Below are positions 14,715-63,027 of a stretch of 64,000 nt of DNA, one piece after another (position 1 is the stretch's first letter; the number at the start of each line of letters is the position of its first letter). The position numbers and the translations under genes were made by a program. The DNA is from Gluconacetobacter asukensis. Its GTDB lineage: Bacteria > Pseudomonadota > Alphaproteobacteria > Acetobacterales > Acetobacteraceae. The notes beneath the pieces are model-generated. The model did not search any database and had not been told where the DNA came from. It was given only the letters and a program-made list of their open reading frames with translations. The stretch lies in assembly GCF_014174375.1 (NCBI RefSeq), contig NZ_JABEQE010000002.1, forward strand, positions 62,001 to 126,000, given 5' to 3'.

Positions 14715-14877
14715 GAGGCTGTTTTAAAAGCCCCGTTGGCGGCGGCCTGACGGCGGTTTCCTGCGCTTCGGTGCTCTCGGCCCATAAGGCCGCTCCGCTC
14801 CGATGCTCGAAAACCACCGCCAGACGCGCGGCTGGCGCCACGCTTCCACTCACCATCGGGGCTTTTAAAACAGCCTC
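14715..14877. repeat. 162-bp palindromic 3'-end element, copy C
   Basis: Perfect 21-bp terminal inverted repeats (14715-14735 and 14857-14877) begin at the base after the phnA stop. The core at 14761-14809, read on the minus strand, contains GAGCATCGGAGCGGAGC and GAGCACCGAAGCGC, shared with the copies at 42517 and 62866. An inner hairpin (CGCCAG / CTGGCG, 14818-14837) is also present. Confidence 0.85.
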
Positions 14878-14892
14878 CAAACGAATCGGGGT

Positions 14893-14932
14893 GCAGGGGT
14901 CCGCGACCCCTGCCGGGTTCGGGCAGAGCCCG
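14893..14932. repeat. Short GC-rich double-hairpin repeat, copy 1
   Basis: Two stems: GCAGGGGTC / GACCCCTGC (14893-14913) and CGGGC-AGA-GCCCG (14920-14932). This 40-base stretch recurs with only about two differences near 25207-25246. It lies between phnA and the lpd terminator. Confidence 0.75.
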
Positions 14933-14965
14933 ACCCCTGCCCACCACACTCGGAAGACTGCGCCC

Positions 14966-14999
14966 AACAAAAACGCCCGGCCACCGAAATGGCCGGGCG
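14966..14999 (-). terminator. Intrinsic terminator of the odhA-odhB-lpd operon
   Basis: On the minus strand a perfect 10-bp stem CGCCCGGCCA / TGGCCGGGCG (14974-14999) with a six-base loop is followed by TTTTTGTT. It lies 25 bases after the lpd stop codon. Confidence 0.88.
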
Positions 15000-15024
15000 C
15001 GATAGACAGTCATCCAGCATGCGA

Positions 15025-16767
15025 TCAGATATGGATCGCGCGCTTTTCCACATCCAGCGCCGCTTCCTTGACCGCTTCGCTCAGCGTCGGATGCGCGTGG
15101 CAGGTGCGGGCGATATCTTCCGACGAAGCGCCGAATTCCATCGCCAGCGTGGCTTCGGCGATCATTTCGCCGGCGCCGGGGCCGATGATGTGCACGCCCA
15201 GCACCTTGTCGGTCGTGGCATCCGCCAGCACCTTCACGAAGCCGTCGGTCATGCCCATGGCGCGGGCGCGGCCGTTGGCGGTGAAGGGGAACTTGCCGGT
15301 CTTGTAGGTAACGCCGGAATCCTTCAGCTCTTCCTCGGTGCGGCCGACGGTCGCGACCTCGGGCCAGGTGTAGACGACGCCGGGGATGGCATCGTAATTC
15401 ACATGACCCGCCTGGCCGGCCAGGATCTCGGCGATGGCAACACCTTCATCCTCGGCCTTGTGCGCCAGCATCGGGCCGGCGATGACATCGCCGATCGCGT
15501 AGACGCCCGGCACGCTGGTCGCATAATGGGCATCGGTCACGACACGGCCGCGCTTGTCCAGCGCCACGCCGGCCTCTTCCAGGCCCATGCCCTTGCTGGC
15601 GGCGGTGCGGCCGATCGACAGCAGGACGATGTCGGCTTCCAGCATCTCGGCGGTACCACCGGCGGCCGGCTCGACGGACAGCGTCACGCCCTTGCCGGTC
15701 TTCTCGGCCTTGGTGACCTTGTGGCCCAGCTTGAACTGCAGACCCTGCCTGGTCAGGATACGCTGGAACTGCTTGGCGATCTCGCCATCCGTGCCCGGCA
15801 CCAGACGGTCGAGATATTCGACCACCGTGACCTCGGCGCCCAGACGGTGCCACACGCTGCCCAGTTCCAGCCCGATCACGCCGCCGCCGATGACGACCAG
15901 CTTTTTCGGCACGGCCGACAGTTCCAGCGCGCCGGTCGAGGTAACGATGACCTTCTCGTCGACTTCGACACCCGGCAGGCCGGCGCTGTCGCTGCCGCTG
16001 GCAATCACGATATGCTTCGCCGTTACCGGCTTGCCGTCGACCGTGATGCGGCCGGTGCCTTCCAGCTTGCCGAAGCCCTTCAGCCAGGTGACCTTGTTCT
16101 TCTTGAACAGGAACTCGACGCCCTTGACGTTGGCATCGACCACTTCGGCCTTGCGCGCCATCATCCGCTTCAGATCCAGCTTGACGCTGTCGATCAGGAT
16201 GCCATGGCCCGCGTAATCATGGCCGGCGGCATGGAAGTTTTCGGACGATTGCAGCAGCGCCTTGGAGGGAATGCAGCCGACATTCAGGCAGGTGCCGCCC
16301 AGGGTCGCGCGCTTCTCGACGCAGGCGACCTTGAAGCCGAGCTGGGCCGCACGGATGGCGCAGACATAACCGCCGGGGCCGGCGCCGATGACGATGACGT
16401 CGTAATCGGTCTCGGCCGGGGGGGCGACCGCCGGGGCGGCGGGGGCCGGAGCAGGTGCTGCCTTGGCTTCGGCAGGCTTCGCCGCCGGAGCGGGCTTGGC
16501 GGCGGCAGGCTTCGTCGGCGCGGCGCCCGCGCCTTCCTCGACGGTCGTCAGCACGGCGCCGACCGCGACTTCGTCGCCCTCGGCCACGGCGTGCGCACCC
16601 AGACGGCCGGCCGCGGGGGCGGCGACCTCGACGCTGACCTTGTCCGTCTCCAGTTCCACCACCGGTTCGTCGGCGGCGACGCTGTCACCCGGCTGCTTCA
16701 GCCACTTGCCGATCGTGGCCGTCGTCACGCTCTCGCCGAGAGTCGGCACCTTGATTTCAATGGTCAT
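15025..16767 (-). CDS. lpd: Dihydrolipoyl dehydrogenase (E3) with an N-terminal lipoyl domain
   Basis: 580 residues, about 115 more than a plain E3. Residues 1-78 are a complete lipoyl domain with the target Lys43 in ETDKVSVE. An Ala/Pro/Lys linker (80-120) leads to a normal flavoprotein: FAD loop GAGPGG (128-133), redox disulfide Cys160/Cys165 in GGTCLNVGC, a NAD-binding [10 protein letters not shown], and the His559/Glu564 pair in HAHPTLSE. E3 reoxidises the dihydrolipoyl arm of the 2-oxoglutarate dehydrogenase complex. The lipoyl domain is about 80% identical to that of the adjacent OdhB and residues 26-51 are the same in both. It is the last gene of the odhA-odhB-lpd operon. Confidence 0.96.
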
Positions 16768-16839
16768 ATTCTTGTCCTGCGTTCGCTGCGTCGGAATGAA
16801 TCGGCGGACCGGGCCGAGAACCCGGTCCGCCCCGGCGCA

Positions 16840-18081
16840 TCAGACCTCGAGCAGCAGACGGCGCGGGTCTTCCACGTTCTGCTTCACGCGCACCAGGAAG
16901 CTGACGGCTTCCTTGCCGTCGACGATGCGGTGATCGTAGGTCAGGGCGATATACATCATCGGCCGGATCACGACCTGGCCGTTCAGGGCGATCGGCCGAT
17001 CCTGGATGGCATGCATGCCCAGGATGGCCGACTGCGGCGCGTTGATGATCGGCGTCGACATCAGCGAACCGTAGATGCCGCCATTGGTGATCGAGAACGT
17101 GCCGCCCGACAGTTCGTCCAGCTTCAGCGACCCGTCACGCGCGCGCTTGCCGAAACCGGCGATCGCGCTCTCGATCCCGGCGAAGCCGAGCTTCTCCGCA
17201 TCGCGGATCACCGGCACGACCAGCCCGTTGGGGCCGCCGACCGCGATGCCGAGATTGACGAACTCGCGATAGATGATGTCGTCGCCGTCGATTTCGGCGT
17301 TGACCGCCGGGAATTCCTTCAGCGCCGCCATCACCGCCTTCGCGAAGATCGACATGAAGCCCAGCTTGGTGCCGCCATGCTTCTTCTCGAAGACGTCACG
17401 ATATTCGGCACGCAGTTCCTTCGCCGCCGTCATGTCCACCTCGTTGAAGGTGGTCAGCAGGGCGGCGGTGTTCTGGGCGTCCTTCAGGCGGCGGGCGATG
17501 GTCCGGCGCAGGCGGGTCATCTTCACCCGTTCCTCGCGCGGGTCGTCGGTGCGCGGCGTGGCGGGGGCGGCGACGGCCTTGGCCACCGGCGGCTGCGCCA
17601 GGAACGACAGCACGTCACCCTTCGTCACCCGTCCGTCCTTGCCCGTGCCGGTGCCGATCTCGGCGGTCGAGATGCCCTTCTCGGCCATGATCTTCTGCGC
17701 CGACGGCATCGGGGCATGGGCCGCACCCTGGGCCGCGACATCGGAAGGCGGGGTGGCGGGACGCGCGACCGGGCCGGCCGCGACCGGCTGGGCCTGGACG
17801 CCGGCGGGGGCCTTGGCGGGCGCCGCCGCCTTGGGGGCGCCGCTGCCGGCCTCGACCGACGCCAGGATGGCCCCGACCTCGACCTCGGCGCCTTCGGCGA
17901 CCAGCTGCGGACCCAGCACGCCGGCTTCCGGCGCCGCGACCTCGACGCTGACCTTGTCGGTCTCCAGCTCCACCACCGGCTCGTCGGCGGCGACGCTGTC
18001 ACCCGGATTCTTCAGCCACTTGGCAATGGTGGCGGTCGTCACGCTCTCGCCCAGCGTCGGAACCTTGATCTCGGCAGACAT
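16840..18081 (-). CDS. odhB: 2-oxoglutarate dehydrogenase E2, dihydrolipoyllysine succinyltransferase
   Basis: 413 residues. The ATG at 18081 has GGAAAG just upstream and gives the usual start [13 protein letters not shown]. Domains in order: lipoyl (1-78, Lys43), an Ala/Pro linker, a peripheral-subunit-binding domain ([16 protein letters not shown] then [12 protein letters not shown], about 130-170), and the catalytic domain ending with the His384/Asp388 motif [13 protein letters not shown]2 transfers the succinyl group to CoA in the TCA cycle. The gene lies 178 bases after odhA, across two stable hairpins, and 72 bases before lpd. Confidence 0.97.
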
Positions 18082-18195
18082 CTTTCTTTCCATTCCCTCT
18101 GCCGGTCAGATCCGCGTGCTGGACCGGGGCACGATCGTCCGCGCCCCCCACCCGTCGTCTGCCGGCTTGTGCATTCTCAACATAACCAGACTGAA

Positions 18196-18253
18196 GCCGG
18201 CGCGGGAATACCGCGCCGGCCGACCTTCGACGTCCCGGCCCGCCGGCCGGGAC
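18196..18253 (-). other. Pair of stable hairpins between odhA and odhB
   Basis: Two consecutive perfect stems follow the odhA stop: 18232-18253 (GTCCCGGCC / GGCCGGGAC, four-base loop) and 18196-18220 (GCCGGCGCGG / CCGCGCCGGC, five-base loop). Neither has a T-run. They may tune processing or relative expression of E1 and E2 within the operon. Confidence 0.6.
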
Positions 18254-18259
18254 GCAACC

Positions 18260-21133
<2,874 letters not shown>

Positions 21134-21606
21134 CTTGAAGACATCTCCTCATTCATGGCCTGATCGGCCACGTCATTATCCGGACCCGGATCATCTGCGC
21201 CGATCACGGCGAAAAGACGATCCTCACCCTTTATCGTCCCAACCCTAGCGCCACCTTTGGCCATCCGCCGCCATCTTTCGCCACGGGCAGGATTGCTTCG
21301 CACGCATACTCACCTTTCCGTTTCCACCTGCTCACGCAACGGTGTCACGAAACCGGCATCAGGCGCACGGCACACCGAACAGCGACGGAACCGGCAGATG
21401 ACCCGAAGGGCCGTCCATACCCAAGCAAAGAGCGAACCACTTGCCTACCGCCGCGCCGCTCACACCACCGCCATATGCGTCACGATACCGTGACAGCAGG
21501 GAACGCCCGCCCCCGAGCCCAAACCGCCCCGGCCGCCGCCTGCGCACCCGGCGCGCACGCCCCCGGAACGCACCGGCCGGGCCAGGCGCCGCCGCGTTGG
21601 AAATGC
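21134..21606. other. Upstream region of odhA, no gene
   Basis: About 470 bases between the odhA start and the zapE terminator with no supported gene. It must hold the odhA promoter and leader. The only clear structure is a perfect interrupted palindrome GTCACG-ATAC-CGTGAC at 21479-21494, which could be an operator; a related half, GTCACG, occurs near 21344. No confident -35/-10 pair was found. Confidence 0.45.
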
Positions 21607-21650
21607 TGAAAAGAAAGGCAGACCCTGCATGGATTTTGGCTGGGCCTGCC
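21607..21650 (-). terminator. Terminator-like hairpin after zapE
   Basis: On the minus strand GGCAGGCCC (21642-21650) pairs with GGGTCTGCC (21617-21625, one G-T) around a 16-base loop, followed by TTTCTTTTC. It starts 9 bases after the zapE stop. Confidence 0.7.
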
Positions 21651-21658
21651 GGGCATGA

Positions 21659-22846
21659 TCAGGACAGATGCGGCAGGTCCAGATAGGCGGCACTCTGCAT
21701 CTCCTCGAGCCGCGAGGCCGTCCGCTCGAAAGCCTGCGCGCCCTCGCCCTTCTGGTAGATCGCATCCGGCTGGTCCTCGGCCGAGGCGAACAGCTTCACC
21801 TTCTGTTCGTACAGCGTATCGACCAGAACGATGAAACGGCGGGCAACATCGAAATTATCGGGTCCCAGACGGGGAATATCGTCAAGCACCAGAGCCGGGA
21901 AGCGCGTGGCCAGGGCCAGGTAGTCGCCCGCGCCCAGCGCCCGCCCGCACAGGTCGGGGAAGATAAAGCGCGCCACCGGGCCGGCCGCGACCGTTACCGC
22001 GAGCTTGCGGCCCATCACCTCCAGCGTCACGGGTCGGATCGGCGCGCCATCGGCCAGGCGCATGAAGAGCGAATCCAGCTCCTGCGTCGCATCCGGGCCG
22101 GGCGGCACGATCCAGGTCGTCATGCCGCGCATGCCGCCGCGACGATAATCGCGCGGCGAGTCCAGGACCACCGTATCGACCTCGCGCTGGATGATCGCGA
22201 TGAAAGGCCGGAAGGCATCTGCCCCCGGCCGGTTCTGGAACAGATCCTGCGGTTCGGTGTTCGAGGTCGCGACCACGACCACGCCGTCGGCAAACAGATA
22301 TTCGAACAGCCGCCCCAGCACCATCGCGTCGGCGATATCGTTCACCTGGAATTCATCGAAACAGAGCAGCCAGGCTTCCTGCGCGATGGCGCGGGCCAGC
22401 GGCGGAATCGGATCGGTCAGCTCCGGGTTCCGACGCTTCATGTCGTGCAGCCGCTTGTGAACATCCTGCATGAAGCGGTGGAAATGCACCCGCATCTTGT
22501 GTTCGACCGGCGCCAGTTCGAAGAACAGGTCCATCAGCATGGTCTTGCCGCGCCCGACCTGCCCGACCATGTAGACCCCGCGCGGACGCGGCGCCTCCGC
22601 CGCGCCGCCATTCAGGCCCAGCCGGGCCTTCAGTCCGCCCAGCAGCCCCTTCGGCGGCGGGCGCCGCACCACGGGGTGATAACCGGGCAGTTCGCGCCAC
22701 AGCCGGTCCAGCCGGGCAGCCGCCTTGGCCTGCTCGGGGTCGCGGGACAGCAGTCCGGCGGCGACCCGTGCCTCGTACGCAGCCAGGGGCCCCGAGCCAG
22801 AGGGCAGATTCAGATCGGATGCGAAGGCTGTCAGCGCGGATTCCAT
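21659..22846 (-). CDS. zapE: ZapE/AFG1-family cell-division ATPase
   Basis: 395 residues. ZapE is a cytosolic P-loop ATPase that binds FtsZ rings late in division in E. coli; the mitochondrial relative AFG1 acts in protein quality control. Walker A is GQVGRGKTML (about residues 100-109), preceded by family motif PRGVYMVG. Walker B is WLLCFDEFQVND, followed by the sensor VVVVATSNTEP. The C-terminal KLFASAEDQPD motif is typical. It sits upstream of odhA on the same strand but with its own terminator between. Confidence 0.94.
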   Translation of the reverse strand: MESALTAFASDLNLPSGSGPLAAYEARVAAGLLSRDPEQAKAAARLDRLWRELPGYHPVVRRPPPKGLLGGLKARLGLNGGAAEAPRPRGVYMVGQVGRGKTMLMDLFFELAPVEHKMRVHFHRFMQDVHKRLHDMKRRNPELTDPIPPLARAIAQEAWLLCFDEFQVNDIADAMVLGRLFEYLFADGVVVVATSNTEPQDLFQNRPGADAFRPFIAIIQREVDTVVLDSPRDYRRGGMRGMTTWIVPPGPDATQELDSLFMRLADGAPIRPVTLEVMGRKLAVTVAAGPVARFIFPDLCGRALGAGDYLALATRFPALVLDDIPRLGPDNFDVARRFIVLVDTLYEQKVKLFASAEDQPDAIYQKGEGAQAFERTASRLEEMQSAAYLDLPHLS

Positions 22847-22978
22847 GATCTATCGCCGATAGCGCCGGCAACGCCTCTCAGCAAGAGCATCCACTCGCCA
22901 AACCGTGTCGTGACAGGCCTGCTCTCCATCTGGTGAACTCCATCGCGGTCCATGACCACACATCAAGGATGTTTCGCG

Positions 22979-23323
22979 ATGATCGACTGGTCCGCCTACC
23001 GCCATTTCCTCGGCCGGGCCGTGCCCGCCTTCGCCGCCCTCTCGCCGGGAACGGTCGAAGGGCTTACGACGCTGGACAATGCCCCCAAGACCACCAACCG
23101 GCTGGACGCCAAGACACGCGAACTGATCGCGCTGGCCGTCGCCGTCACCACACGCTGCGACGGATGCATCGCCGTCCATTCCAAGGCCGCCGTGCAGGCC
23201 GGCGCGACGAAAGAGGATATCGCCGAGGCCCTGGGCGTCGCCGTGGCGCTGAACGCCGGCGCGGCCGCGGTCTATTCCACCCGGGCGCTGGACGCGGCCG
23301 AAAAGGCTGCCGGCGCGGCCTGA
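22979..23323 (+). CDS. Carboxymuconolactone decarboxylase/AhpD-like protein
   Basis: 114 residues from the ATG at 22979, which has AAGGAT upstream; an earlier in-frame ATG at 22952 is possible. The core KTRELIALAVAVTTRCDGCIAVH carries the AhpD-type redox pair Cys60/Cys63 and His67, so it is probably a small peroxidase-like disulfide enzyme rather than a ring-opening decarboxylase. The helical pattern ends ALGVAVALNAGAAAVYSTRAL. It is divergent from zapE and followed by an oxygenase gene in the same direction. Confidence 0.88.
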   Translation: MIDWSAYRHFLGRAVPAFAALSPGTVEGLTTLDNAPKTTNRLDAKTRELIALAVAVTTRCDGCIAVHSKAAVQAGATKEDIAEALGVAVALNAGAAAVYSTRALDAAEKAAGAA

Positions 23324-23429
23324 CGCCCGCGCGGCGGGGCGCGCCGTTCCGCCCCACCTTGATTTCCCGCCGGCTCCGGCACTAGGAATCGGGATGTGGT
23401 CTTCCTCATCCCGATCCCGCGCAGGTTCC

Positions 23430-25130: not shown

Positions 25131-25133
25131 GCG

Positions 25134-42494: not shown

Positions 42495-42806
42495 GCCACC
42501 AGCACATATGGCCGGGAGTGTGTGCGCGGAAACGTGGGCTGGTGAGAGAGAGCGGCCCACAGGGCCGCGCCCGTCATGTGTTTCCGAGCACCGGAGCGAA
42601 GCAGCCTTGATGGCCGTGAGCACCGGAGCGCAGGCAACGCGCGTCGGATCGCCACCAGCGCATATGGCCGGGAGTGTGTGCGCGGAAGCGTGGGCTGGTG
42701 AGCGAGAGCGGCCCATAGGGCCGCGCCCGGCATGCGTTTCCGAGCACCGGAGCGGAGCAGCCTTGATGGCCGTGAGCACCGGAGCGCAGGCAACGCGCGT
42801 CGGATC
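42495..42806. repeat. Tandem duplication, two 156-bp units
   Basis: Unit 1 spans 42495-42650, unit 2 42651-42806; a third unit begins (GCCACCAGCG at 42807) but stops within the right arm. The units differ at only a handful of bases. 156 is a multiple of three and no stop interrupts the minus-strand frame joined to the kinase gene. A decayed unit end is also visible at 42481-42494. Confidence 0.9.
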
Positions 42807-42836
42807 GCCACCAGCGCGCGTTTCCGCGCACACACT
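42517..42836. repeat. 162-bp palindromic 3'-end element, copy B, internally duplicated
   Basis: Outer arms AGTGTGTGCGCGGAAACG (from 42517) and its complement (ending 42836) pair over about 28 bases with few mismatches. Removing one 156-bp unit leaves about 164 bp, the size of the other copies. Cores at 42586 and 42742 contain GAGCACCGGAGCG twice each; inner hairpins GCGGCCC/GGGCCGC lie at 42552-42568 and 42708-42724. The right end touches the response-regulator stop codon (42835-42837). Confidence 0.85.
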
Positions 42837-43629
42837 AGAGGCGTTCTACGGGGGCGGTGAAGATATACCCCAACCCCCGGACAGTCCGGATCAGGGCTTC
42901 GGAATCGTTGCCCAGCTTGCGGCGGAGGCGACTGACCAGAACGTCCACACTGCGATCGGACACATCGCCCAGACGCGTGCGCGACAGTTCCAGCAGCCGG
43001 TCCCGCCCGATCACCCGTTGCGGATTGTCCAGGAAGCTGGCCAGCAGATCATGCTCGGCGCCGGAAATATCCACCACCGCGCCCGAGGGGTCGGTCAGTT
43101 CGCGCCGGCGCAGATCCAGCGTCCAACCGGCGAATTTCAGCGTTTCACGGCGCGGGGTACTAGGCTGAACCCCGGTCACGCCACCGCTGCCGCGCCGCAG
43201 CACCGCGCGGACCCGTGCCAGTAATTCCTTCTGGCTGAAGGGCTTGGCCACATAATCGTCGGCGCCGAGTTCCAGGCCGAGCACGCGGTCCAGTTCCTCG
43301 CCCCGGGCCGAGACCATGATGACGGGCGTGTGCCGATCGGGCTGGATGGCCTCGCTACCTGGCGTGCCGCCCCGCCGCAGCGAGCGGCAGAGATCCAGCC
43401 CGTTGGTACCCGGCAGCATCACGTCCAGCACGATCAGATCGGCGGGTGATGCCGCCAGCGCGGCCCACATCTCGCGCCCGTCCTGCACGCCCCGCACGCG
43501 ATAGCCATCGGCCTGCAAGGCCCTTACCAGCAGGGTGCGCATGCCGGGATCGTCCTCGACAACCAGAATGCGGGCAGGCAGGTCGGAATCGGGGGCGGTC
43601 TGGGACATCGTCACGGGGTGAATCGTCAT
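42835..43629 (-). CDS. OmpR-family response regulator
   Basis: 264 residues from the ATG at 43629 (an alternative ATG is at 43608; neither has a strong ribosome binding site). The receiver domain shows ILVVEDDPGMRTLL, phospho-acceptor Asp69 in LIVLDVMLPGTNGL, and YVAKPFSQKELLARVRAVLRR. The winged-helix output domain has LDLRRRELTDPSG and DVLVSRLRRKLGNDSEALIRTVRGLGYIFT. It is transcribed before the histidine kinase, but the two are separated by the 320-bp palindromic element, which may lower kinase expression. Confidence 0.94.
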   Translation of the reverse strand: MTIHPVTMSQTAPDSDLPARILVVEDDPGMRTLLVRALQADGYRVRGVQDGREMWAALAASPADLIVLDVMLPGTNGLDLCRSLRRGGTPGSEAIQPDRHTPVIMVSARGEELDRVLGLELGADDYVAKPFSQKELLARVRAVLRRGSGGVTGVQPSTPRRETLKFAGWTLDLRRRELTDPSGAVVDISGAEHDLLASFLDNPQRVIGRDRLLELSRTRLGDVSDRSVDVLVSRLRRKLGNDSEALIRTVRGLGYIFTAPVERL

Positions 43630-53522: not shown

Positions 53523-53562
53523 CGCGTCGGATCGCCACCAGCGCGCGTGTCCGGGCCGAGAT
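53523..53562. repeat. Truncated palindromic 3'-end element, copy D
   Basis: A 26-base stretch from 53523 (CGCGTCGGATCGCCACCAGC and six more bases) is identical to the right end of the copy at 42517-42836. It stops at the hrcA stop codon (53563-53565). Core and left arm are missing. Confidence 0.7.
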
Positions 53563-54630
53563 TCAGCCGAGCATTCTGCCTATGACGCGCGCGGTATAAT
53601 CCACGACGGGAATAATGCGCCCATAATTGAGCCGCGTGGGCCCGATCACGCCGATCGCACCCACGATGCGGTTACTTTCGGTCCGCGCCGGCGCCACCAC
53701 CACCGAGGTGCCGGACAGGCCGAACAAGCCACTTTCGGCCCCGATGAAGATCCGTACGCCGTCCGATTCCTGGGCCAGTTCCAGCAGGCGCAGCATCGTC
53801 TCCTGCGTTTCCAGCCGCTCGAACAGCATCTGGATGGTGGACAGGCGCTCGATCTCCGTCACGTCGGCCAGCAGACGCGCCTGGCCGCGCACGAACAGCG
53901 TGCCGCCACGGTCCACGTCGCTCCACGTCGCCAGCCCGCTGGCCACGATCTCGGCCGTCAGATGGTGCAGTTCGCTGCGATTGGCGCTCATATCCGCACT
54001 GACATGCGCGCGCAGATCCTCAAGCGAGCGGCCGGCCAGCTGGGCATTGAGGTAGTTCCCCGCCTCGACCAGCGCCGAGGGCGGCAGGCCGATCGGGGTC
54101 TCGATCACCCGGTTTTCCACCTGCCCGTCCGCGCCCACCAGGATCACCAGCGCGCGCCGGGGGCCCAGGGCCACGAATTCGATATGCTTCACCGCCCCAT
54201 CACCCTTGGGCGCCAGCACCAGCCCGGCGGCCGAGGACAGGCCGGACAGCATCGACGACGCCTCGGCCAGCGTGTCCTGCAACGAGCGCCCGCGCATCTC
54301 CAGCGAGTTGGTGATGGTCTCGCGCTCATCCTCGCTCAGGCTGCCGAACTGCAGCAGGCCGTCGACGAACAGCCGCACCCCCTTTTCCGTCGGCAGCCGG
54401 CCGGCCGACGCGTGGGGCGAGAACAGCAGCCCGGCCTCGGTCAGGTCCGCCATCACATTGCGGATGGTGGCGGGCGAGAGCGGCAGCGGCAGGCGCCGCG
54501 ACAGGGTGCGCGAGCCGACCGGCTCGCCGGTTTCGACATATTGTTCGACGATCTCGCGCAGGATCGCCGCCGAACGGGCATCCAGCCCCGGCGGCAGGGC
54601 CGGACGGGAAGACAGCGTGCCGGGATTCAT
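53563..54630 (-). CDS. hrcA: Heat-inducible transcription repressor HrcA
   Basis: 355 residues from the ATG at 54630 (GGAGG eleven bases upstream; a GTG at 54648 is in frame). The N-terminal winged helix reads [24 protein letters not shown] and [33 protein letters not shown], followed by the GAF-like and dimerisation domains ([33 protein letters not shown]). HrcA represses groESL and similar genes at CIRCE sites. No CIRCE was seen in its own upstream region. It is divergent from rph, the usual alphaproteobacterial order. Confidence 0.95.
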
Positions 54631-54878
54631 CCTGCTTGAAGCCTCCACGTTCGCAGCCGGAAATACCGGCCGAATTGAGCACTATACGAGGTTGCCGCCA
54701 AAGTTTCGATGCCGCCTGAACAGGTGGCGCGCGGGGCAACCGCTGCAACGGAATCTGGAGGCGCCGGCAGGCGATGACAAGCGCGGGCTGGCCATTATCC
54801 CCCGGCTCGGGCTATGCCCGCCTTTTCGGCGGCCCGCCCCGGAATACCCTGCCTGTCGATGCGGAGTATCGTTTGCCC

Positions 54879-55628
54879 ATGACCACCCGCCCCTCGGGCC
54901 GCGCCCCCGACGCGCTACGCCCCGTCTCCATCGAAACGGGCTTCGCCCGCCACGCCGAGGGATCGGCCCTGATCCGCATGGGCGGGACGGAGGTGCTGTG
55001 CGCCGCCAGCGTCGAACCGCGCGTGCCGCCCTTTCTGCGCGGCCAGGGCAAAGGTTGGGTGACGGCGGAATACGGCATGCTGCCCCGCGCCACCCACACG
55101 CGTGGCGCCCGCGAGGCCGCAAAGGGCAAGCAGTCGGGCCGCACGCAGGAAATCCAGCGCCTGATCGGCCGCTCGCTGCGCGCCGTGACGGATTTGAGCG
55201 CGCTGGGCGAAATCTCGATCACTGTCGATTGCGACGTGCTGAACGCCGATGGCGGCACCCGCTGCGCCTCGATCACCGGCGCCTGGGTCGCCCTGCGACT
55301 GGCGCTGGAAAAGCTGGTGCGCAACCGCGTCCTGGCCCGCGTGCCGCTGACGGCGCAGGTCGCCGCGATCTCCTGCGGCCTGACCGGGGCCGGGCCGGTG
55401 CTGGACCTTGATTATGACGAGGACAGCGCGGCCGCCGCCGACGCCAATTTCGTCCTGACCGAGGCCGGCGGCATCGTCGAGATCCAGGGCACGGCCGAGC
55501 AGGCCCCCTTCTCGCAGGCGCAGTTCGAGGCCCTGCTGCGCCTGGCGCAGGACGGCACGCAGCATCTGTTCGCCGCCCAGCGCGCGGCGGTGGACGCCGC
55601 ACTGGGCGCGCGGAGCGACGCGTCGTGA
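54879..55628 (+). CDS. rph: Ribonuclease PH
   Basis: 249 residues from the ATG at 54879. RNase PH trims tRNA 3' ends with phosphate. The start region [19 protein letters not shown], the phosphate-site stretch [44 protein letters not shown], and [22 protein letters not shown] are all conserved. The frame is open upstream to 54774, but the family starts at MTTRPSGR. It overlaps rdgB by four bases. Confidence 0.97.
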
Positions 55629-56242
55629 GCGGGGCGGAGGCACGCCGCCTGGCCGGTGGCGAACGGCTGGTCCTGGCCAGCCACAACAAGGGCAAGCTGG
55701 CGGAATTCGACGCCCTGCTGAGCGGGTATGGCATCACCATCGTCTCGGCCGGCCAGCTTGGCCTGCCCGAGCCCGAGGAAACCGCCGACAGCTTTACCGG
55801 CAACGCGGCGCTGAAGGCCGTGGCGGCGGCACAGGCCAGCGGCCTGCCGGCACTGGCCGACGATTCCGGCCTGTGCGTCGCCGCCCTGGGGGGCGCGCCG
55901 GGGATCTATTCCGCCCGCTGGGCCGGCCCCGACAAGGATTTCCCCGGCGCCATGGCCCGCATCCACGAAGGCATCGGCACGGACGAAGACCGGTCGGCCT
56001 GGTTCATCTCCGTCCTGTGCCTGGCCTGGCCCGACGGCACCGTCCGTACGTTCGAAGGCCGGATCGACGGGCAGATCGCCTGGCCGCCCCGTGGCGCCCA
56101 CGGCCATGGCTACGACCCGATCTTCATGCCGGACGGCGAGACCCGGACCTTCGCCGAGATGCCGGAAGCCGAGAAGAACGCCATCAGCCACCGCGCCCGC
56201 GCCTTCGCTGCCTTCCGCGCCGCCTGCCTGCCTCCCGGATGA
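55625..56242 (+). CDS. rdgB: XTP/dITP pyrophosphatase
   Basis: 205 residues with a GTG start that overlaps the rph stop (GTGA). It hydrolyses non-canonical purine triphosphates to keep them out of DNA. Motifs: [13 protein letters not shown] (residues 16-28), [40 protein letters not shown], and [10 protein letters not shown] with [12 protein letters not shown]. The rph-rdgB pair is typical; the hemW gene that often follows is absent here. Confidence 0.96.
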
Positions 56243-56250
56243 GGCAGGGG

Positions 56251-56304
56251 ACAAGGGCGTTGCCCGGCTCTGCCCTTGACCCACCAAAGGGCAGCGCCCT
56301 TTGG
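56251..56304. repeat. Composite GC-rich hairpin repeat, copy 4
   Basis: Contains CCAAAGGGC-AGC-GCCCTTTGG (56284-56304) followed by GAAACC, the same block as 25158-25183, preceded by an AAGGGC/GCCCTT stem. It separates the convergent genes rdgB and the nitronate-monooxygenase-like gene. Confidence 0.75.
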
Positions 56305-56352
56305 AAACCCGTTCGTTATCAGCAGATTATCATAATTGGTCGCTTGAAACGC

Positions 56353-56377
56353 GAACGGGCCCCGATGGGGCCCGTTC
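56353..56377 (-). terminator. Terminator-like hairpin after the nitronate-monooxygenase-like gene
   Basis: Eleven-base arms GAACGGGCCCC / GGGGCCCGTTC with a three-base loop, 15 bases after the stop on the minus strand. The following T content is weak (GCGTTTC). Confidence 0.6.
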
Positions 56378-56392
56378 CAACACTGCGCCGTG

Positions 56393-57811
56393 TCAGCGTC
56401 CGGTCAGGATGCGATCGACCAGTTGGCCGACCGTCGGCACGAACCCGTTGGCGTAGAACGGGTCGGTGCCGAAGCGCCACGCATTCGTGCCGCCGAACAT
56501 CAGGTTGTTGTCCATCACTTCGTCGGCGCCCTCGGGGCCGGCATGGGCGATGGACTGAAGCGTCTTCTGGATGCAGAACGAGCGCGGATCGGCCTTGTGA
56601 CCGTTGGAATAGTCCGGCCCCCGCTGGCTCCAGTTCGAGAAGCGGCATTCCGACAGGCAGCCCATGCATGCCACCTGATCGGCCAGGATCTCCCGCGCCT
56701 TCTCGGGCGCGACGAAGATCAGGGTGGAATCCGGGGTGCGCATGGCCTCGGTATAGCCCTCGCGCTCCCACAGAAGGACATGCGCGCGGTCGGCTTCGGT
56801 CATGAAGACCAGCCGGCCACGTGCACCCACGCCATAGGACGCCGTATGCTCGCCCACCGGTTCGGTGGAATAGGCAACCTGGCGCTCGGACCGCGCCTGG
56901 AGTTCCAGCAGGAACGGATTGTTCACCGCCGAGGAATAGAATCCGGTCGGCGAGAAGCGGTTCAGGAAGACATCGCCCTTCTTCAGGGTCAGCAGCCTGC
57001 GCTTCCACGCGTCGGGGATCGGGCTTTCCTGCGTCAGCAGCGGCCGGGTGCCGAACTGGAAGGCAATCGGCCCCAGTTCGGGATTGTCGATCCAGTCTTC
57101 CCATTCCTCCAGGCACCACACGCCGCCGGCCATGATGATCGGCGTCTCGTGCAGGCCGAAGCCGCGCATCGCCTGGCGCAGCGCCAGCACGCGGGGGAAC
57201 GGGTCCTCGGGGTTGAGCGGATTTTCGGTGTTCGACAGGCCGTTATGCCCGCCGGCCCGCCACGGGTCTTCGTACACCACCCCGCCCAGCCCGTCGGGGT
57301 TCTTGTGGAACGACCGCTTCCACAGGGCGCTGAACGCCCGGGCGGATGAGACGATGGGATAATAATGGATGCCGAACCGCGCCGCGATCTCCGACAGGCG
57401 ATAGGGCATGCCCGCGCCGCAGGTCAGGCCATGGATCAGTCCCGGCGCGCCTTCCAGCACCCCGGTAATGACTTCCTCGGCGCCGCCCATCTCCCACAGG
57501 ATATTGGCGTGGATACGTCCGCGCCCACCGGCCAGATCATGCGCGATCTTCGCCTGCGCGATGCCGCCATTGATGGCATAGGCAATCAGTTCCTGCTGCC
57601 GTTCGCGCCGGTTGCGGCCATGATAGACCTGCGGGACGCGTCGTCCCTCGGCGTCATAGGAATCGGCATTGACGATCGACACCGTGCCGGCGCCACCCGC
57701 CGCCGCCCAATGTCCGGACGATATACCGGTCGAAACCGACACGCCCTTTCCACCTTCGATCAGCGGCAGGACATCCACCCCGCCCATGCGGATCGCATTG
57801 ATCGCCTTCAT
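56393..57811 (-). CDS. Nitronate monooxygenase-like flavoprotein with a C-terminal cysteine cluster
   Basis: 472 residues from the ATG at 57811. The TIM barrel is of the nitronate monooxygenase/2-nitropropane dioxygenase type: MGGVDVLPLIEGGKGVSVSTGISSG, AAAGGAGTVSIVNADSY, GLTCGAGMPYRLSEI, TPIIMAGGVW and AFQFGTRPLLTQES. It is about 120 residues longer than usual. The extra C-terminal part has Cys382, Cys385, Cys389 (ACMGCLSEC) and Cys413, a spacing suited to an iron-sulfur cluster. The barrel should bind FMN; the true substrate is unknown. It is 111 bases downstream of pnp on the same strand. Confidence 0.8.
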   Translation of the reverse strand: MKAINAIRMGGVDVLPLIEGGKGVSVSTGISSGHWAAAGGAGTVSIVNADSYDAEGRRVPQVYHGRNRRERQQELIAYAINGGIAQAKIAHDLAGGRGRIHANILWEMGGAEEVITGVLEGAPGLIHGLTCGAGMPYRLSEIAARFGIHYYPIVSSARAFSALWKRSFHKNPDGLGGVVYEDPWRAGGHNGLSNTENPLNPEDPFPRVLALRQAMRGFGLHETPIIMAGGVWCLEEWEDWIDNPELGPIAFQFGTRPLLTQESPIPDAWKRRLLTLKKGDVFLNRFSPTGFYSSAVNNPFLLELQARSERQVAYSTEPVGEHTASYGVGARGRLVFMTEADRAHVLLWEREGYTEAMRTPDSTLIFVAPEKAREILADQVACMGCLSECRFSNWSQRGPDYSNGHKADPRSFCIQKTLQSIAHAGPEGADEVMDNNLMFGGTNAWRFGTDPFYANGFVPTVGQLVDRILTGR

Positions 57812-57922
57812 CACTACCCTATCGTCCTCGCGCGGTCCCGACGGACCGGCGTCTCGTCCATACGTGCCCCGCACCCCGCGGGGCCGCGGCGGTGGAGCAG
57901 GCTGCCCCACCGCCGACCGGCT

Positions 57923-60064
57923 TCAGCGCGCCGGCGGCCGAGCGGGCTTGGCTCCGACATTCTCGGTGATGTCGGCGCCGGTCTCCTGATCGACGACGCG
58001 CATCGACAGCTTGACCTTGCCGCGATCGTCGAAGCCCAGGACCTTCACCTTGACCACATCGCCCTGGTTGACGACGTCCGTGGTCTTGGCAACCCGGCCC
58101 TGCGACAGTTCCGAGATATGGACCAGACCGTCGCGCGCGCCCAGGAAGTTCACGAACGCACCGAAATCGGCGGTCTTGACCACCTTGCCGGTGTAGATCG
58201 CGCCGATCTCGGGCTCGGCCACGATGCCGCGGATGCGCTCGATCGCCTTGTTGGCCTGCTCTTCGGCCGACGCCGCGATCATGATCGTGCCGTCATCGTT
58301 GATGTCGATCTTGGCACCCGAATATTCAACGATCTCACGGATCACTTTACCGCCCTGGCCGATCACATCGCGGATCTTTTCCTTGGGCACGGTGATGGTG
58401 GTGATCTTCGGCGCCGTCGAGGACACGTCGCTGCGCCCCTCGGTCAGGGCCTTGGACATCTCGCCCAGGATGTGCAGGCGGCCGTCGCGCGCCTGGCCCA
58501 GGGCGATCTTCATGATCTCCGGCGTGATGGACGTGATCTTGATGTCCATCTGCAGCGCGGTGACGCCCTGCTCGGTGCCGGCCACCTTGAAGTCCATGTC
58601 GCCGAGATGGTCTTCGTCACCCAGGATGTCGGACAGCACGGCGAAGCCGCGATCTTCCTTGATCAGGCCCATGGCGATGCCCGCCACCGGCCGCTTCAGC
58701 GGCGCACCGGCATCCATCAGCGCCAGCGAGGTGCCGCACACGGTCGCCATCGAGGACGAACCGTTGCTCTCGGTGATCTCGGACACCACGCGCATCGTGT
58801 ACGGGAAGGTATCCTTGCCGGGCAGCAGCGGATGCACCGCGCGCCAGGCCAGCTTGCCATGGCCGATCTCGCGACGGCCGGGCGAACCCATGCGGCCGCA
58901 CTCACCCACCGAGTAGGGGGGGAAGTTGTAGTGCAGCATGAAGTTGGTGCGGTACTCGCCTTCCAGCGCGTCGATCACCTGCTCGTCCTGGGCGGTGCCC
59001 AGGGTGGCGACCACCAGGGCCTGGGTCTCGCCACGGGTGAACAGGGCCGAGCCATGGGCACGCGGCAGGATGCCGACTTCCGACATGATCGGGCGAACCG
59101 TCTTCAGGTCGCGGCCGTCGATGCGCAGGCCGGTATCCAGCACCGCGCTGCGCACCACGTCGGCTTCCAGGTCCTTCAGGATCGGCTTGGCCGCATTGGC
59201 GTCCAGGCCTTCTTCCGTCAGCGCCGCCAGCACGGCGTCCTTCGCCGCGCCGACCTTCTTGTAACGCGCCTGCTTCACGCGCTCCTGATACGCCTCGGCG
59301 ATCGAGGCGCGGCCCAGCTCGTCGACCCGCTTGCGCAGCGCCAGCTCCTCGGCCGACGGCTCGGCCAGGTCCCACGGCGCCTTCGCGGCATGCTCGGCCA
59401 GCGCGATGATGGCGTCGATGACCGGCTGGAACGATTCATGACCGAAGGTCACGGCGCCCAGCATCACCTCTTCGCTCAGTTCGCCCGCCTCGGACTCGAC
59501 CATCAGCACGCCTTCCGACGTGCCGGCGACCACCAGGTCCAGCGCGCTGGTCTTCAGCTCCGCCAGGGTCGGGTTCAGCACATAGGCGCCGTTCTCGTAG
59601 CCGACGCGGCAGGCCGCGACCGGGCCGAAGAACGGAATGCCCGACAGGGTCAGCGCCGCCGAGCAGCCGATCAGGGCCACGATCGACGGATCGTTCTCCA
59701 GATCATGGCTCAGCACGGTCGCGACGACCTGCACTTCGTTGCGGAAGGCTTCCGGGAACAGCGGACGGATCGGACGGTCGATCAGGCGCGAATTCAGGAC
59801 CTCGATCTCCGACGGGCGCCCTTCACGCTTGAAGAAGCCGCCCGGGATCTTGCCGGCCGCATAGGCCTTTTCCTGGTAGTTGACCGTCAGCGGGAAGAAA
59901 TCCTGGCCCGGCTTGACGCTGCGGGCACCGACGGCGGTGCAGAGCACGACCGTGTCGCCATAGGTCACGACCACGGCGCCATCGGCCTGGCGGGCGATCT
60001 TGCCCGTCTCCAGCACCAGCGTGCGGCCGCCCCACTCGATCTCTTTGCGGTAGTAATTGAACAT
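57923..60064 (-). CDS. pnp: Polyribonucleotide nucleotidyltransferase
   Basis: 713 residues; GGGAG lies before the ATG. Two RNase PH domains (first from about residue 12, second with GRRDLKTV-like [13 protein letters not shown] and [16 protein letters not shown]), an alpha-helical linker, a KH domain ([15 protein letters not shown]), and an S1 domain ([33 protein letters not shown]). It degrades RNA from the 3' end with phosphate and joins the degradosome. A 9-bp stem (57888-57916) follows its stop, without a T-run. The order rpsO-pnp is standard. Confidence 0.98.
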
Positions 60065-60378
60065 TCAGACACTCCCTGTCCGAAAGCCGCCCCGGACGGA
60101 TGGGAGGGGTCCGGACAAGGGGATGAAGGACAGCGTCTCGGACGGCATGGAGCGATGACGGTGGCCCGCCAGAACACCATGTGGCCTGAAACGCTGCGAC
60201 CCGGTCCGGATGTCTCCACCGACATAGGGGCAGCGTGTGACCCGGCCCACGATTGGGCATCGGGCAATGGCGGCCCCGCGACAACGGGGTGGCCACGCCA
60301 TCCCGTCGGCGGAACGCACCAACGCGACCCGGCCCGTTGCCACGCATTGCGCGGCAGCGGACCGGATCGCGTGTCATC
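60065..60378. other. Spacer between rpsO and pnp
   Basis: 314 bases with no gene. A weak stem (CCCCG/CGGGG near 60282-60299) is visible. In other bacteria this spacer holds the pnp promoter and an RNase III-processed leader stem; no clear long stem was recognised here. Confidence 0.4.
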
Positions 60379-60648
60379 TCAGCGGCGCAGACCCAGGCGG
60401 CCGATCACGGCCTGGTAGCGGGCCTCGTCCTTGCGCTTCAGATAGTCCAGCAGGCCGCGGCGCTTGCCGACCATCACCAGCAGGCCGCGACGCGAATGGA
60501 AATCCTTCGCGTGGGTCTTCAGGTGCTCGGTCAGGTTCGTGATCCGCTCGGTCAGCAGGGCGACCTGGACTTCCGGCGAGCCGGTATCCTGGGCGGCGGT
60601 CTGGTATTCGCCAATCAGCGCCGTGCGGCGTTCAGCAGTAATCGACAT
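60379..60648 (-). CDS. rpsO: 30S ribosomal protein S15
   Basis: 89 residues, the standard length, from the ATG at 60648 with GGAG seven bases upstream (a GTG four codons earlier is rejected). Conserved blocks: [46 protein letters not shown] and the end [13 protein letters not shown]15 binds 16S rRNA early in 30S assembly. Confidence 0.98.
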
Positions 60649-60672
60649 CGGGTTCTCCACATTCAGATTCGG

Positions 60673-61593
60673 TTAAAGCATGCGGTCCGGGCGCAGCCAG
60701 CCATCTTCCAGCCGGCAAAGCCCGATCACGCGCCCCCCGTCCATCCCCCGGACAATCCCCTGGTCGGGATCGGCGGCGTCCGGAATGCGTCCCATCAGGC
60801 CCAGCAGGCTGATCGCCTGCCCGTGCGAAAGGGACTCTGCTTCCTCGTGGGTCAAGGCCAGCGCCGGGATGTCGGCCAGCGCGGTCGCGACCGGAAGAAG
60901 AAGATCCGGTGAGGCAGGCGCGTTGTCGTCGTTTGGCGCCAGTTTGTCCAGTGGAATCGCGTCTTCCTCGGCAAAAGGGCCGACCCGCAGGCGGCGCAGG
61001 GCGGCCACATGGCCGACCGTGCCGCAGGCCCTGGCAATGTCGCGCGCGAGCGAGCGCATATAGACGCCCTTGCCGGATTCCACCTCGAAAATCGCGGTGT
61101 CCTCATCGGGCCGCGCCACCAGCTCGAACCGGTCGATCCGCGCCGGCCGGGGCGGCAGCTCGGGCGGGCGACCGTCGCGCGCCATGTCATAGGCCCGCTC
61201 GCCCGCCACCTTGATCGCGGAATAGACGGGCGGCACCTGCATGATGTCGCCCCGAAAGGCCGGCAGCGCACGGCGGAAATCATCGTCCGAGGGACGAACC
61301 GGCGAGGTCTCGGTCACCGCGCCGTCGGCATCGTCCGTGTCCCTTGCCTCGCCCAGGCGCAGGGTGAACTGGTAGCGCTTGGTCCCATCCATGATGTAGG
61401 GCACCGTCTTGGTGGCCGCGCCGAAGGCGATGGGCAGCAGCCCGGTCGCCAGCGGGTCCAGCGTGCCGCCATGCCCCGCCTTGGCGGCGTCGAACAGACG
61501 CTTCACCCGGTTGACGACATCGGTCGATGTCATCCCCGTCGGCTTGTCGATGACCAGCCAGCCATCGATCGGACGTCCGCGCTTGCGTCGCAT
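60673..61593 (-). CDS. truB: tRNA pseudouridine-55 synthase
   Basis: 306 residues. TruB makes the pseudouridine of the tRNA T-loop. The start GWLVIDKPTGMTSTDVVNRVKR and the catalytic stretch KAGHGGTLDPLATGLLPIAFG with the aspartate are intact, as are PPVYSAIKVAGERAYDMARDG and GVYMRSLARDIARACGTVGHVAALRR. It lies 24 bases before rpsO. Unlike the common order, it is cut off from rbfA by an opposed MCE gene, so it needs its own promoter in 61594-61749. Confidence 0.97.
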   Translation of the reverse strand: MRRKRGRPIDGWLVIDKPTGMTSTDVVNRVKRLFDAAKAGHGGTLDPLATGLLPIAFGAATKTVPYIMDGTKRYQFTLRLGEARDTDDADGAVTETSPVRPSDDDFRRALPAFRGDIMQVPPVYSAIKVAGERAYDMARDGRPPELPPRPARIDRFELVARPDEDTAIFEVESGKGVYMRSLARDIARACGTVGHVAALRRLRVGPFAEEDAIPLDKLAPNDDNAPASPDLLLPVATALADIPALALTHEEAESLSHGQAISLLGLMGRIPDAADPDQGIVRGMDGGRVIGLCRLEDGWLRPDRML

Positions 61594-61749
61594 GGGGCAA
61601 AACCTTCTTGATCAGAATCCTGGAAGAGGCGTGCGTGTAGACGAGCCCTGAATGAGGAGCAATGCCGGATTGTGCCATGCCTGCTTTCTCATGAGGCCGG
61701 GGAGGTCCGAATAAAAGCCGATGATCACTCTTCTTCGTCCCCACGGCCG

Positions 61750-62727
61750 ATGAGCATGCATCCGGGCCGGGTAGCCCGATGGGCGGCCATCCTGCTCTTC
61801 GTCGCCGGCGGGATCGCGCTGGGCTGCGCCTTCCTGGGCTCGTTCGGCCAGTTCGGCCTGCTGGCGCGCACCGAACGGGCCATGATCGTGTTCGACCATC
61901 CGGTGGGCGGCCTGCGCCCCGGCGCGGCCGTCACATTTCGCGGCGTGATGCTGGGCCGGGTCGAGCAGGTCGCCCTCGACGCCGATCCGCAGCAGGGCCG
62001 CACGCTGATTCCCGTCATCATCCGCATCCAGCCCGAGCGGATTCATATGACGGCCGGCGCGGATGCCTCGTCGCCCCACCAGATCCTGGTCCGGCTGGTG
62101 CGCGACGGATTACAGGCCGAACTCCATACCGCCAGCCTGGTCACCGGCCGCGTCGGCATCGATCTGGATATCGTCTCCGGCCCCATTCCGCCGCCGCATC
62201 CCGGCCTGTCGGACCTGGTGGAAATCCCGGCCCACGAATCCCGGCTGGCGATCCTGCGCCGCACCCTCACCACCCTGCCGATCCACAAGATGGCCGCGGA
62301 ATGGCGACAGGCCGTGCAGGAAAGCCAAAAAATAGCGCAGACTCTGGATACCAGCCTGCCGCCCGTCCGCGCCAGCCTGGCGGCCACCGCATCAGCCCTC
62401 CAAACGGCCTCGGCCACGGCGAAAGCTGCCCGGCAAAAGACTGAAAACGACTGGCACGCCACCCGCACCGCGATCGCGCAGGCCCGGGCCACAGCCCACC
62501 AGCAGATCCATGATCGCGGCAGGGACATCCAGGCCCTCACCCGCGACAGCGAAACGGCCATGGCAGCCGCCCGGCAGGTCCGCTCCGACCTGCACACGCC
62601 CGACGATGCGTTGAAGGCCGACCTGGAGGCCACGCGGCGCGATATCGCGGCCGGCGGCACCGCGCTGCATGACGCGGCGCATAAGATCCGACAGGCGCCG
62701 GGGGTGCTGCTGCTGGGGACGAAATAG
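61750..62727 (+). CDS. MCE-domain protein (MlaD/PqiB-like), single anchor
   Basis: About 325 residues from the ATG at 61750 (ATGs at 61756 and 61672 are also in frame; no strong ribosome binding site). One N-terminal helix (VARWAAILLFVAGGIALGCAFLGSFG) is followed by an MCE domain: FDHPVGGLRPGAAVTFRGVMLGRVEQVAL, then strands RTLIPVIIRIQPERI, LVRDGLQAELHTASLVTGRVGIDLDIV. A long helical tail (about 170-320) resembles the MlaD/PqiB needle-forming helices. MCE proteins carry lipid between membranes. No permease or ATPase partner is nearby. It breaks into the infB-rbfA-truB-rpsO-pnp order on the opposite strand. Confidence 0.85.
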   Translation: MSMHPGRVARWAAILLFVAGGIALGCAFLGSFGQFGLLARTERAMIVFDHPVGGLRPGAAVTFRGVMLGRVEQVALDADPQQGRTLIPVIIRIQPERIHMTAGADASSPHQILVRLVRDGLQAELHTASLVTGRVGIDLDIVSGPIPPPHPGLSDLVEIPAHESRLAILRRTLTTLPIHKMAAEWRQAVQESQKIAQTLDTSLPPVRASLAATASALQTASATAKAARQKTENDWHATRTAIAQARATAHQQIHDRGRDIQALTRDSETAMAAARQVRSDLHTPDDALKADLEATRRDIAAGGTALHDAAHKIRQAPGVLLLGTK

Positions 62728-62732
62728 TCTTC

Positions 62733-62852
62733 GTTCTTTTTTGAAAAAAAGAACCAAAAAACTCTGATTCGTTCAGGAATTTTTTGCCGGGGCACACGAT
62801 GCCCCTGAACAGATCAGAAGTCTTTTTGCTTCTTTTTCTTCAGAAAAAGAAG
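62733..62852. repeat. Three-hairpin A/T-rich repeat module, copy 2
   Basis: Same three-stem order as 6727-6846 but reversed: 62733-62754 (GTTCTTTTTT / AAAAAAGAAC), 62764-62777 with 62804-62817 (12 of 14 paired), and 62829-62852 (CTTCTTTTTC / GAAAAAGAAG). The loop keeps the GCCCCGGCAAAAAA-type string. It follows the MCE gene stop by five bases. Confidence 0.85.
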
Positions 62853-62865
62853 AGACCTTCTCTTG

Positions 62866-63027
62866 GAGGCCGTTTGCAAAGTCGCCCTGCCGAGCGAGAG
62901 TGCCGCGTAGCGGCACGCCCGGCGTGTATTTTTGAGCATCGGAGCGGAGCGGCCTTGATGGCCGTGAGCACCGAAGTGCCGCAAATGCGCGTCGGATCGC
63001 CGGCAGGGCGACTTTGCAAGCGGCCTC
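62866..63027. repeat. 162-bp palindromic 3'-end element, copy A
   Basis: Terminal inverted repeats of 26 bases (62866-62891 and 63002-63027) with one mismatch; the right end abuts the rbfA stop codon (63028-63030) with no gap. The core from 62934 contains GAGCATCGGAGCGGAGC, a CGGCC/GGCCG stem, and GAGCACCGAAGTGC. An inner hairpin GTGCCGC-GTA-GCGGCAC lies at 62900-62916. Confidence 0.88.

What the first reader, a model, noticed from the sequence alone, without database searches (positions are those of the whole stretch)
14715..63027. A family of about 162-bp palindromic elements placed exactly at stop codons, always in the same orientation
Seen directly: 14715-14877, 42517-42836 (one unit duplicated) and 62866-63027 share a core (GAGCAYCGGAGCGGAGC ... 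GAGCACCGRAGYGC) and a length near 162 bp. A fourth, truncated copy is at 53523-53562. The three complete copies begin at or overlap by 1-2 bases the stop codon of phnA, the response regulator and rbfA; the fourth abuts the hrcA stop. Relative to the gene each one abuts, the core orientation is identical in all four cases, which chance or random transposition would not give. I infer a 3'-UTR RNA module (termination, stability or read-through control) or a mobile element with a stop-codon-linked target. I know of no named family that matches.
Basis: partly seen in the sequence, partly recalled or inferred. Interest (0 to 1): 0.85.

Follow-up and report, generated by a model that had tools for sequence, protein, structure and literature searches.

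The report
Mobile hairpins parked on stop codons
A short, non-coding mobile DNA hairpin has spread through acetic-acid bacteria of the genus Gluconacetobacter and sits mostly in one direction at the stop codons of ordinary genes, which raises the question of how a jumping element comes to respect gene ends.

Summary
The window's own genome (a Gluconacetobacter) has at least 138 copies; 85 have their right (core 3') end at an oppositely oriented gene's stop codon (-16 to +3 bp), 3 their left end. The bias recurs in G. aggeris and other species. Empty sites show transposition: a 3-bp C|TNA|G target is duplicated, which at stops is the native TGA. The ends resemble IS5-family elements of the genus, usually with 3-5 mismatches in 15. 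So this is an IS5-type MITE, not a 3'-UTR RNA module: the better-folding strand is opposite to the gene's mRNA (102 of 103 copies). Target sequence alone does not explain the placement: stops in the observed orientation hold 9-17 times more copies per site than intergenic sites, and the full-length IS is at stops in only 3 of 16 sites. I favour selective retention over targeting; this is not settled. Paired arms that change together in place are a second unexplained trait.

The parts
14715..14877 (-). E1, full copy (163 bp), directly after the phnA stop TAA (14712-14714); the far-side flank CAA (14878-14880) is one base off a TAA duplication
   Evidence: (158.8 bits)
42517..42672 (+). E2, left unit of a tandem duplication, lacks its own right end
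   Evidence: 121.6 bits, 42527-42670
42673..42836 (+). E3, full copy; right end overlaps the response-regulator stop codon (42835-42837, minus-strand gene) by two bases
   Evidence: (166.9 bits)
53523..53562 (+). right-end remnant abutting the hrcA stop (53563-53565, minus-strand gene)
62866..63027 (+). E4, full copy (162 bp); flanked by TTG (62863-62865) and TCA (63028-63030)
   Evidence: 177.4 bits
63028..63030 (-). rbfA stop codon TGA = right target triplet of E4; single and native in the empty site of G. aggeris

Best explanation
The elements are non-autonomous miniature transposons (MITEs) of about 162 bp, moved by an IS5-family DDE transposase that acts on ends of the kind GAGNCTG...AAA and duplicates 3 bp at C|TNA|G sites [shown: resemblance of ends, target, duplication; inferred: that such a transposase moves them]. 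TGA and TAA stop codons are TNA triplets, so an insertion there rebuilds the stop and leaves the protein intact [shown clearly at C19:44910, and at rbfA with the far copy decayed]. Copies with the right end against the stop then accumulate because they are kept longer than copies elsewhere, most likely because the core strand, which folds on average 18.5 kcal/mol more stably than its complement, stays out of the gene's mRNA [inferred]. Copies are homogenised by recombination with other copies and/or by hairpin-templated repair, so the two arms change together [coordinated change shown; cause inferred].
For: At least 138 copies in the own genome and copies in all 13 other genomes of the genus searched. 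Empty sites: C19:44910 GGC-TGA-AGAGG in G. aggeris against TGA[E]TGA here; rbfA site TCA against TTG[E]TCA; C1:442392 empty in 6 relative genomes (7 loci). The two 3-bp flanks are identical in 21 of 113 copies at the register used (22 one base inward, 9-10 at the next shifts of both ends; 0-7, mostly 0-3, at unequal shifts), with flank consensus C-TNA-G. 883-bp IS5-type copies (17 of 17 listed) begin and end with GAGCCTGTTTGGAAA, most with TNA flanks; the element's ends equal this 15-mer in 4 of 106 (left) and 2 of 106 (right) copies and mostly differ at 3-5 positions. An 897-bp relative in the own genome has an NF033580 IS5 transposase, 222 bits against cut-off 110. Enrichment at stops 9- to 17-fold per oriented site. 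The IS sits at stops in 3 of 16 sites against 76 of 106 for the element, so the transposase alone does not seem to prefer stops. 32 of 42 stop copies against 8 of 16 others are filled or partly kept in G. aggeris (p 0.07).
Against: The retention step is weak: p 0.07, and 0.11 after judging the empty sites by eye. Target duplications are not fresher outside stop codons: exact in 7 of 39 there, 13 of 39 at stops, whereas simple faster loss would predict the opposite. Non-stop copies with the core in the sense of both neighbours (9) are as common as antisense ones (6), which speaks against a general harm of the core strand in mRNA. The IS copies compared lie mostly in other genomes than the element copies, and 4 of the 16 sites had no called gene on either side. 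The ends differ from the IS ends in most copies. No transposition was observed.
Confidence: 0.6

Rival explanations
1. Oriented targeting: the element (or its core) directs the transposase to the 3' ends of genes, so stop codons are hit preferentially and in one direction at insertion.
For: The offset is exact, not just near (39 of 106 at offset 0); orientation 74 to 2; the excess is 9-17 fold per oriented site; among copies whose G. aggeris site looked cleanly empty by eye, 5 are right-stop and 1 left-stop. IS copies show an asymmetric triplet choice: 13 TYA to 3 TRA at the right end, read by eye among the 16 of 17 listed copies with a TNA there, two of which repeat a site.
Against: At non-stop sites the element's triplet shows no orientation preference (right end C 7, G 6). 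The full-length IS is at stops in only 3 of 16 sites. No component able to sense a stop codon in DNA is known to me.
Confidence: 0.29
2. A functional 3'-UTR element of the host gene (terminator or mRNA stabiliser) that is kept by selection and acts as RNA in the gene's own transcript.
For: Placement directly after stops; very stable folds; many sites shared between species.
Against: Pairing is better on the opposite strand: G.T 603 against A.C 91 cells; core strand more stable in 102 of 103 copies. A run of four T within 15 nt after the far end in the gene's sense occurs in 5 of 106 copies. Copy number in the genus ranges from 7 to 93 under one search (at most 96 candidates scored per genome).
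Confidence: 0.07
3. A REP/BIME-like element moved by a RAYT (Y1) transposase, or an attC-like single-strand recombination site.
For: Palindromic, folds better on one strand, lies after stop codons, as recalled for REPs and attC sites.
Against: No Y1 transposase in the genome; no integron integrase above the cut-off; a 3-bp duplication and IS5-like ends.
Confidence: 0.03

Closest known systems
IS5-family MITEs, and the C|TNA|G-target relatives of IS5 (NuwaII group of the PHIS superfamily, PMC4482050, passages read)
   Same: Short, non-coding, inverted-repeat ends like those of IS5-type elements of the genus, 3-bp TNA duplication with C and G outside.
   Different: Fixed orientation at stop codons; a conserved asymmetric core with one-strand structure; variable outer arms that stay matched.
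REP/BIME elements with RAYT transposases (PMC3733652, passages read)
   Same: High copy number, palindromic, extragenic; often near gene ends (recalled).
   Different: About 162 bp instead of 20-40 bp, target duplication present, no Y1 transposase in this genome.
IS1272 stem-loop-replacing transposition (PMC5678879, passages read)
   Same: Palindromes are involved and the IS ends can form a stem.
   Different: Here the target is duplicated, not replaced; no stem-loop was evident by eye at the clean empty sites.
Correia/NEMIS, RUP and ERIC elements (recalled, not tested)
   Same: About 100-170 bp non-autonomous palindromic repeats.
   Different: Not reported, to my recall, as locked to stop codons in one orientation.
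Integron attC sites (recalled)
   Same: Lie just after a gene, vary in sequence but keep a fold, and act as the strand opposite to the gene.
   Different: IS5-like ends and 3-bp duplications; no integron integrase above cut-off.

Membership tests
IS5-type MITE | terminal inverted repeats shared with an autonomous IS | tested here: met
   883-bp IS5-type copies end in GAGCCTGTTTGGAAA (17 of 17 listed); the element equals it in 4 (left) and 2 (right) of 106 copies and mostly differs at 3-5 of 15, so resemblance, seldom identity
IS5-type MITE | target-site duplication of the same kind as the IS | tested here: met
   3-bp, mostly TNA, for both
IS5-type MITE | polymorphic presence with empty sites | tested here: met
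IS5-type MITE | no transposase gene inside, small size | tested here: met
   about 162 bp; no called gene spans the middle of a copy (0 of 138)
IS5-type MITE | mobilised in trans by the IS transposase | not testable with these tools
   inferred from ends and target only
REP/RAYT | Y1 (HUH) transposase in the genome | tested here: not met
   PF01797: 0 matches in the own genome
REP/RAYT | GTAG or CGTC tag at one end | not tested
   no scan was made
integron attC | integron integrase | tested here: not met
   TIGR02249: 5 matches in the own genome, none over the cut-off
known Rfam RNA | match at or above gathering score | tested here: not met
   0 in the window; the one sub-threshold hit at E4 is a miRNA hairpin model, 30.9 of 124 bits
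3'-UTR module of the abutting gene | structure conserved on the mRNA strand | tested here: not met

The most novel reading that the evidence does not exclude
The core strand is a selected structured RNA (or single-stranded DNA form) that steers a borrowed IS5 transposase to stop codons in one direction, so that the element uses the end of translation as a safe harbour; its outer arms are re-copied from one another, so the element keeps a near-perfect stem while freely changing sequence.
Probability: 0.2. Interest if true: 0.85.

Novelty: new variant of a known kind. Interest (0 to 1): 0.6.

Why it matters
A mobile element that respects gene ends, often with single-base precision, is a natural experiment on how transposons avoid harm: by choosing safe sites or by being filtered. 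Here the two can be separated, because full-length IS copies with similar ends live in the same genus apparently without the bias. The matched change of the two arms in place gives a set of examples of concerted evolution inside a palindrome. It also matters for annotation: in 13 of 106 copies the gene's called stop lies well inside the element's end, and copies could be mistaken for small RNAs or terminators.

Tried and rejected
Tried and rejected: (1) a pattern joining both core halves found 1 place only, too strict. (2) Orientation explained by a one-sided triplet preference of the transposase: not seen at the element's non-stop sites, though the IS copies hint at it. (3) Orientation explained by base composition of the flanks: right flank richer in G+C than left in 15 and poorer in 10 of 26 'other' copies, no clear effect. 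(4) Outer arms extended into the gene as a general rule: 1 copy showed extra pairing of score 5 or more beyond the ends. (5) Rfam, RAYT and integron readings. (6) Literature: the titles and abstract starts listed (the best 2-25 of each) showed no paper on this family or on an IS5-type MITE locked to stop codons; a review of prokaryotic MITEs holds no 'stop codon' (PMC10969869, word search only). The held library lacks most subscription journals.

Rows dropped before counts: one search used 106 of 138 copies (18 scored under 100 bits, 14 lay at region edges or had unmatched arms); one search used 90 of the 111 matches and 32 of the 39 (those under 100 bits left out, reverse-strand echoes among them); one search used 128 matches at E<=1e-10; one search folded 103 copies of 125 bits or more; one search placed 70 of 138 copies in G. 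aggeris, 12 of them inner members of tandem arrays and not counted; the hand check of its empty sites left out 3 unclear ones; one search kept 50 comparisons, several from the same locus in different species.

Full report
What was checked. The window's copies fold into very stable hairpins: z-scores -10.5 (E1), -12.1 (E4) and -7.6 (the E2/E3 stretch) against shuffles. The abutted genes are phnA/yjdM, a response regulator, rbfA and, for the remnant, hrcA.

How many and where. A covariance model from 24 copies finds 138 copies in the 4.39-Mb genome at E<=1e-5 (150 of 6178 candidates were scored, so this may be a lower bound). All 13 other genomes of the genus searched have them, 7 to 93 copies each; of four other genera of the family two have 37 and 7 and two none (at most 96 candidates scored per genome). 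One genome of another family of the class gave 12 weak matches (best 4.7e-9), which I did not follow. Exact core matches in named genomes put the genus as Gluconacetobacter (G. diazotrophicus, tumulicola, aggeris and others), with a few in Endobacter and metagenome assemblies.

Placement. I called genes with a codon-bias script on 78 fetched regions plus the window. Of 138 copies, the nearest feature at the right (core 3') end is a stop in 114, a start in 21 and unknown in 3; a stop lies within -16 to +3 bp of the right end in 85, and of the left end in 3. No copy lies inside a called gene. Among 106 intact-ended copies the stop is exactly the flanking triplet in 39 on the right and in 3 on the left, and lies inside the element's right end in another 28. 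In 1.16 Mb of G. aggeris taken by place (some stretches were chosen near known copies, none for its neighbouring genes) 26 of 32 analysed copies have the right end at a stop, 2 of 32 the left end; in named loci of several species it is 56 of 90 against 2 of 90. Those named loci were found through the core, so they are not a random sample.

Transposition. Comparison with relatives gives clean empty sites. At C19:44910 G. aggeris has GGC-TGA-AGAGG; the own genome has GGC-TGA-[element]-TGA-AGAAAGG. At the rbfA site of the window G. aggeris has CTTCTC-TCA-ATCCAG, here TTG-[element]-TCA. C1:442392, not at a stop, is empty in 6 relative genomes with TGA as the target. C11:25018 shows ATA, not TNA, and at C1:264088 the G. 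aggeris gene ends in TAG, here in TGA. Over 113 copies the two 3-bp flanks are identical in 21 at the register used and in 22 one base inward; 9-10 at the next shifts of both ends together; 0 to 7, mostly 0 to 3, when the ends are shifted unequally. The flanks show C before and G after a TNA triplet. C|TNA|G is the target of the NuwaII group of the PHIS superfamily, relatives of IS5 (PMC4482050, passages read).

Source. The own genome holds an 897-bp element with an IS5-family transposase (NF033580, 222 bits, cut-off 110; PF01609 and PF13340) and an end GAGCCTGTTTTAGAATG. The element's own ends equal these 15 bases in 4 of 106 copies on the left and 2 of 106 on the right; most differ at 3-5 positions, so the mobilising transposase is inferred by kind, not identified. 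Short palindromes with such ends but without the central core also occur, as do collapsed copies of 57-60 bp and a pure palindrome of 35 bp at sites that hold full copies here.

Why stop codons. A TNA target makes TGA and TAA eligible and harmless, but not preferred. Counting available sites in the sampled regions, stop codons in the observed orientation are filled 9 (both flanks match) to 17 (one flank) times more often per oriented site than intergenic sites; left-oriented stops (2 copies) are at or below the intergenic level. At non-stop sites the triplet shows no orientation preference, and those copies show no orientation bias relative to neighbours: 9 sense, 6 antisense, 7 between divergent and 6 between convergent genes. 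The full-length IS is at a stop in 3 of 16 distinct sites, 4 of which have no called gene beside them (Fisher 8e-5 against 76 of 106); most of these IS copies are in other genomes than the element copies compared. So the bias seems to belong to the element, not to the transposase alone. Sharing with G. aggeris is higher for stop copies (32 of 42 filled or partly kept) than for others (8 of 16), p 0.07; after judging the empty sites by eye, kept to empty 35 to 5 against 10 to 5, three unclear left out, p 0.11. This leans to retention but does not prove it, and targeting remains open.

Which strand. In 128 aligned copies, G.T pairs outnumber A.C 603 to 91, and 259 to 88 at pairs whose common state is Watson-Crick; four consensus pairs are G.T and none A.C. 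This alignment was fitted to the core-strand model, which leans that way; an independent check, free folding of each copy and of its complement, gives the core strand the lower energy in 102 of 103, by 18.5 kcal/mol on average. The abutting gene's mRNA carries the other, weaker strand. That speaks against a 3'-UTR module and for a role, past or present, of the core strand as RNA or single-stranded DNA.

Arms that change together. The outer stem is nearly free in sequence but stays paired; one pair occurs as A-T 31, T-A 30, C-G 24 and G-C 13. In 50 comparisons of the same insertion between species there are 123 pairs changed on both sides and still paired, 20 changed on both sides and broken, 300 changed on one side; my arithmetic from these counts expects about 24 double changes if sides were independent. 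The 123 lie in the outer stem (55), inner arm (41) and side hairpin (27). Replacement by other genomic copies explains inner blocks that switch between common types. At C1:276585 the far arm carries an inverted copy of what looks, from G. aggeris, like the gene's own tail, which points to copying across the hairpin; this is one case, and the G. aggeris site could itself be a remnant.

Verdict. An IS5-type MITE, so the kind is known. New are its lock to stop codons in one direction, its one-strand structure and its matched but changeable arms. The stop-codon lock is shown; its cause is inferred.

Noticed in passing
L333/L327 (G. aggeris), sites orthologous to C19:2143 and C4:117689: Full copies have collapsed to 57-60 bp hairpins made of the right arm and the outer left arm, still abutting the stop codon.
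   Followed up: partly
G. aggeris site orthologous to C3:176849 (L357): A pure palindrome of 35 bp (ends only) with a TCA on both sides sits at the same stop codon where the own genome has copies with other arms, as if one stop codon was hit twice or the element was exchanged.
   Followed up: no
G000 C1:276585 (L207): The far arm of the outer stem holds an inverted copy of what looks like the host gene's last coding bases, suggesting hairpin-templated copying.
   Followed up: partly
window 42517-42836; 37 of 138 copies have another within 220 bp: Tandem arrays in which inner units lack a right end; at several loci the unit number seems to differ between species.
   Followed up: no
L373, L374, L376, L377: Other short palindromes (51-115 bp) share GAGNCTGTTT-like ends but not the central core: a wider set of IS5-type miniature elements.
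   Followed up: partly
window 62730-62860: Two A/T-tract hairpins of terminator type (by eye) lie between the MlaD-domain gene and E4, so E4 sits behind an ordinary-looking terminator of its other neighbour.
   Followed up: no
G027 (another family of the class, 1.8-Mb genome; L107): 12 weak matches to the model (best 4.7e-9) in a distant genome; may be unrelated palindromes.
   Followed up: no
L415-L442: The 883-bp IS5-type element is in high copy in G003 and G012 and has TTA at the right end in 10 of 17 listed copies, while the element here shows TCA at most stop sites.
   Followed up: partly
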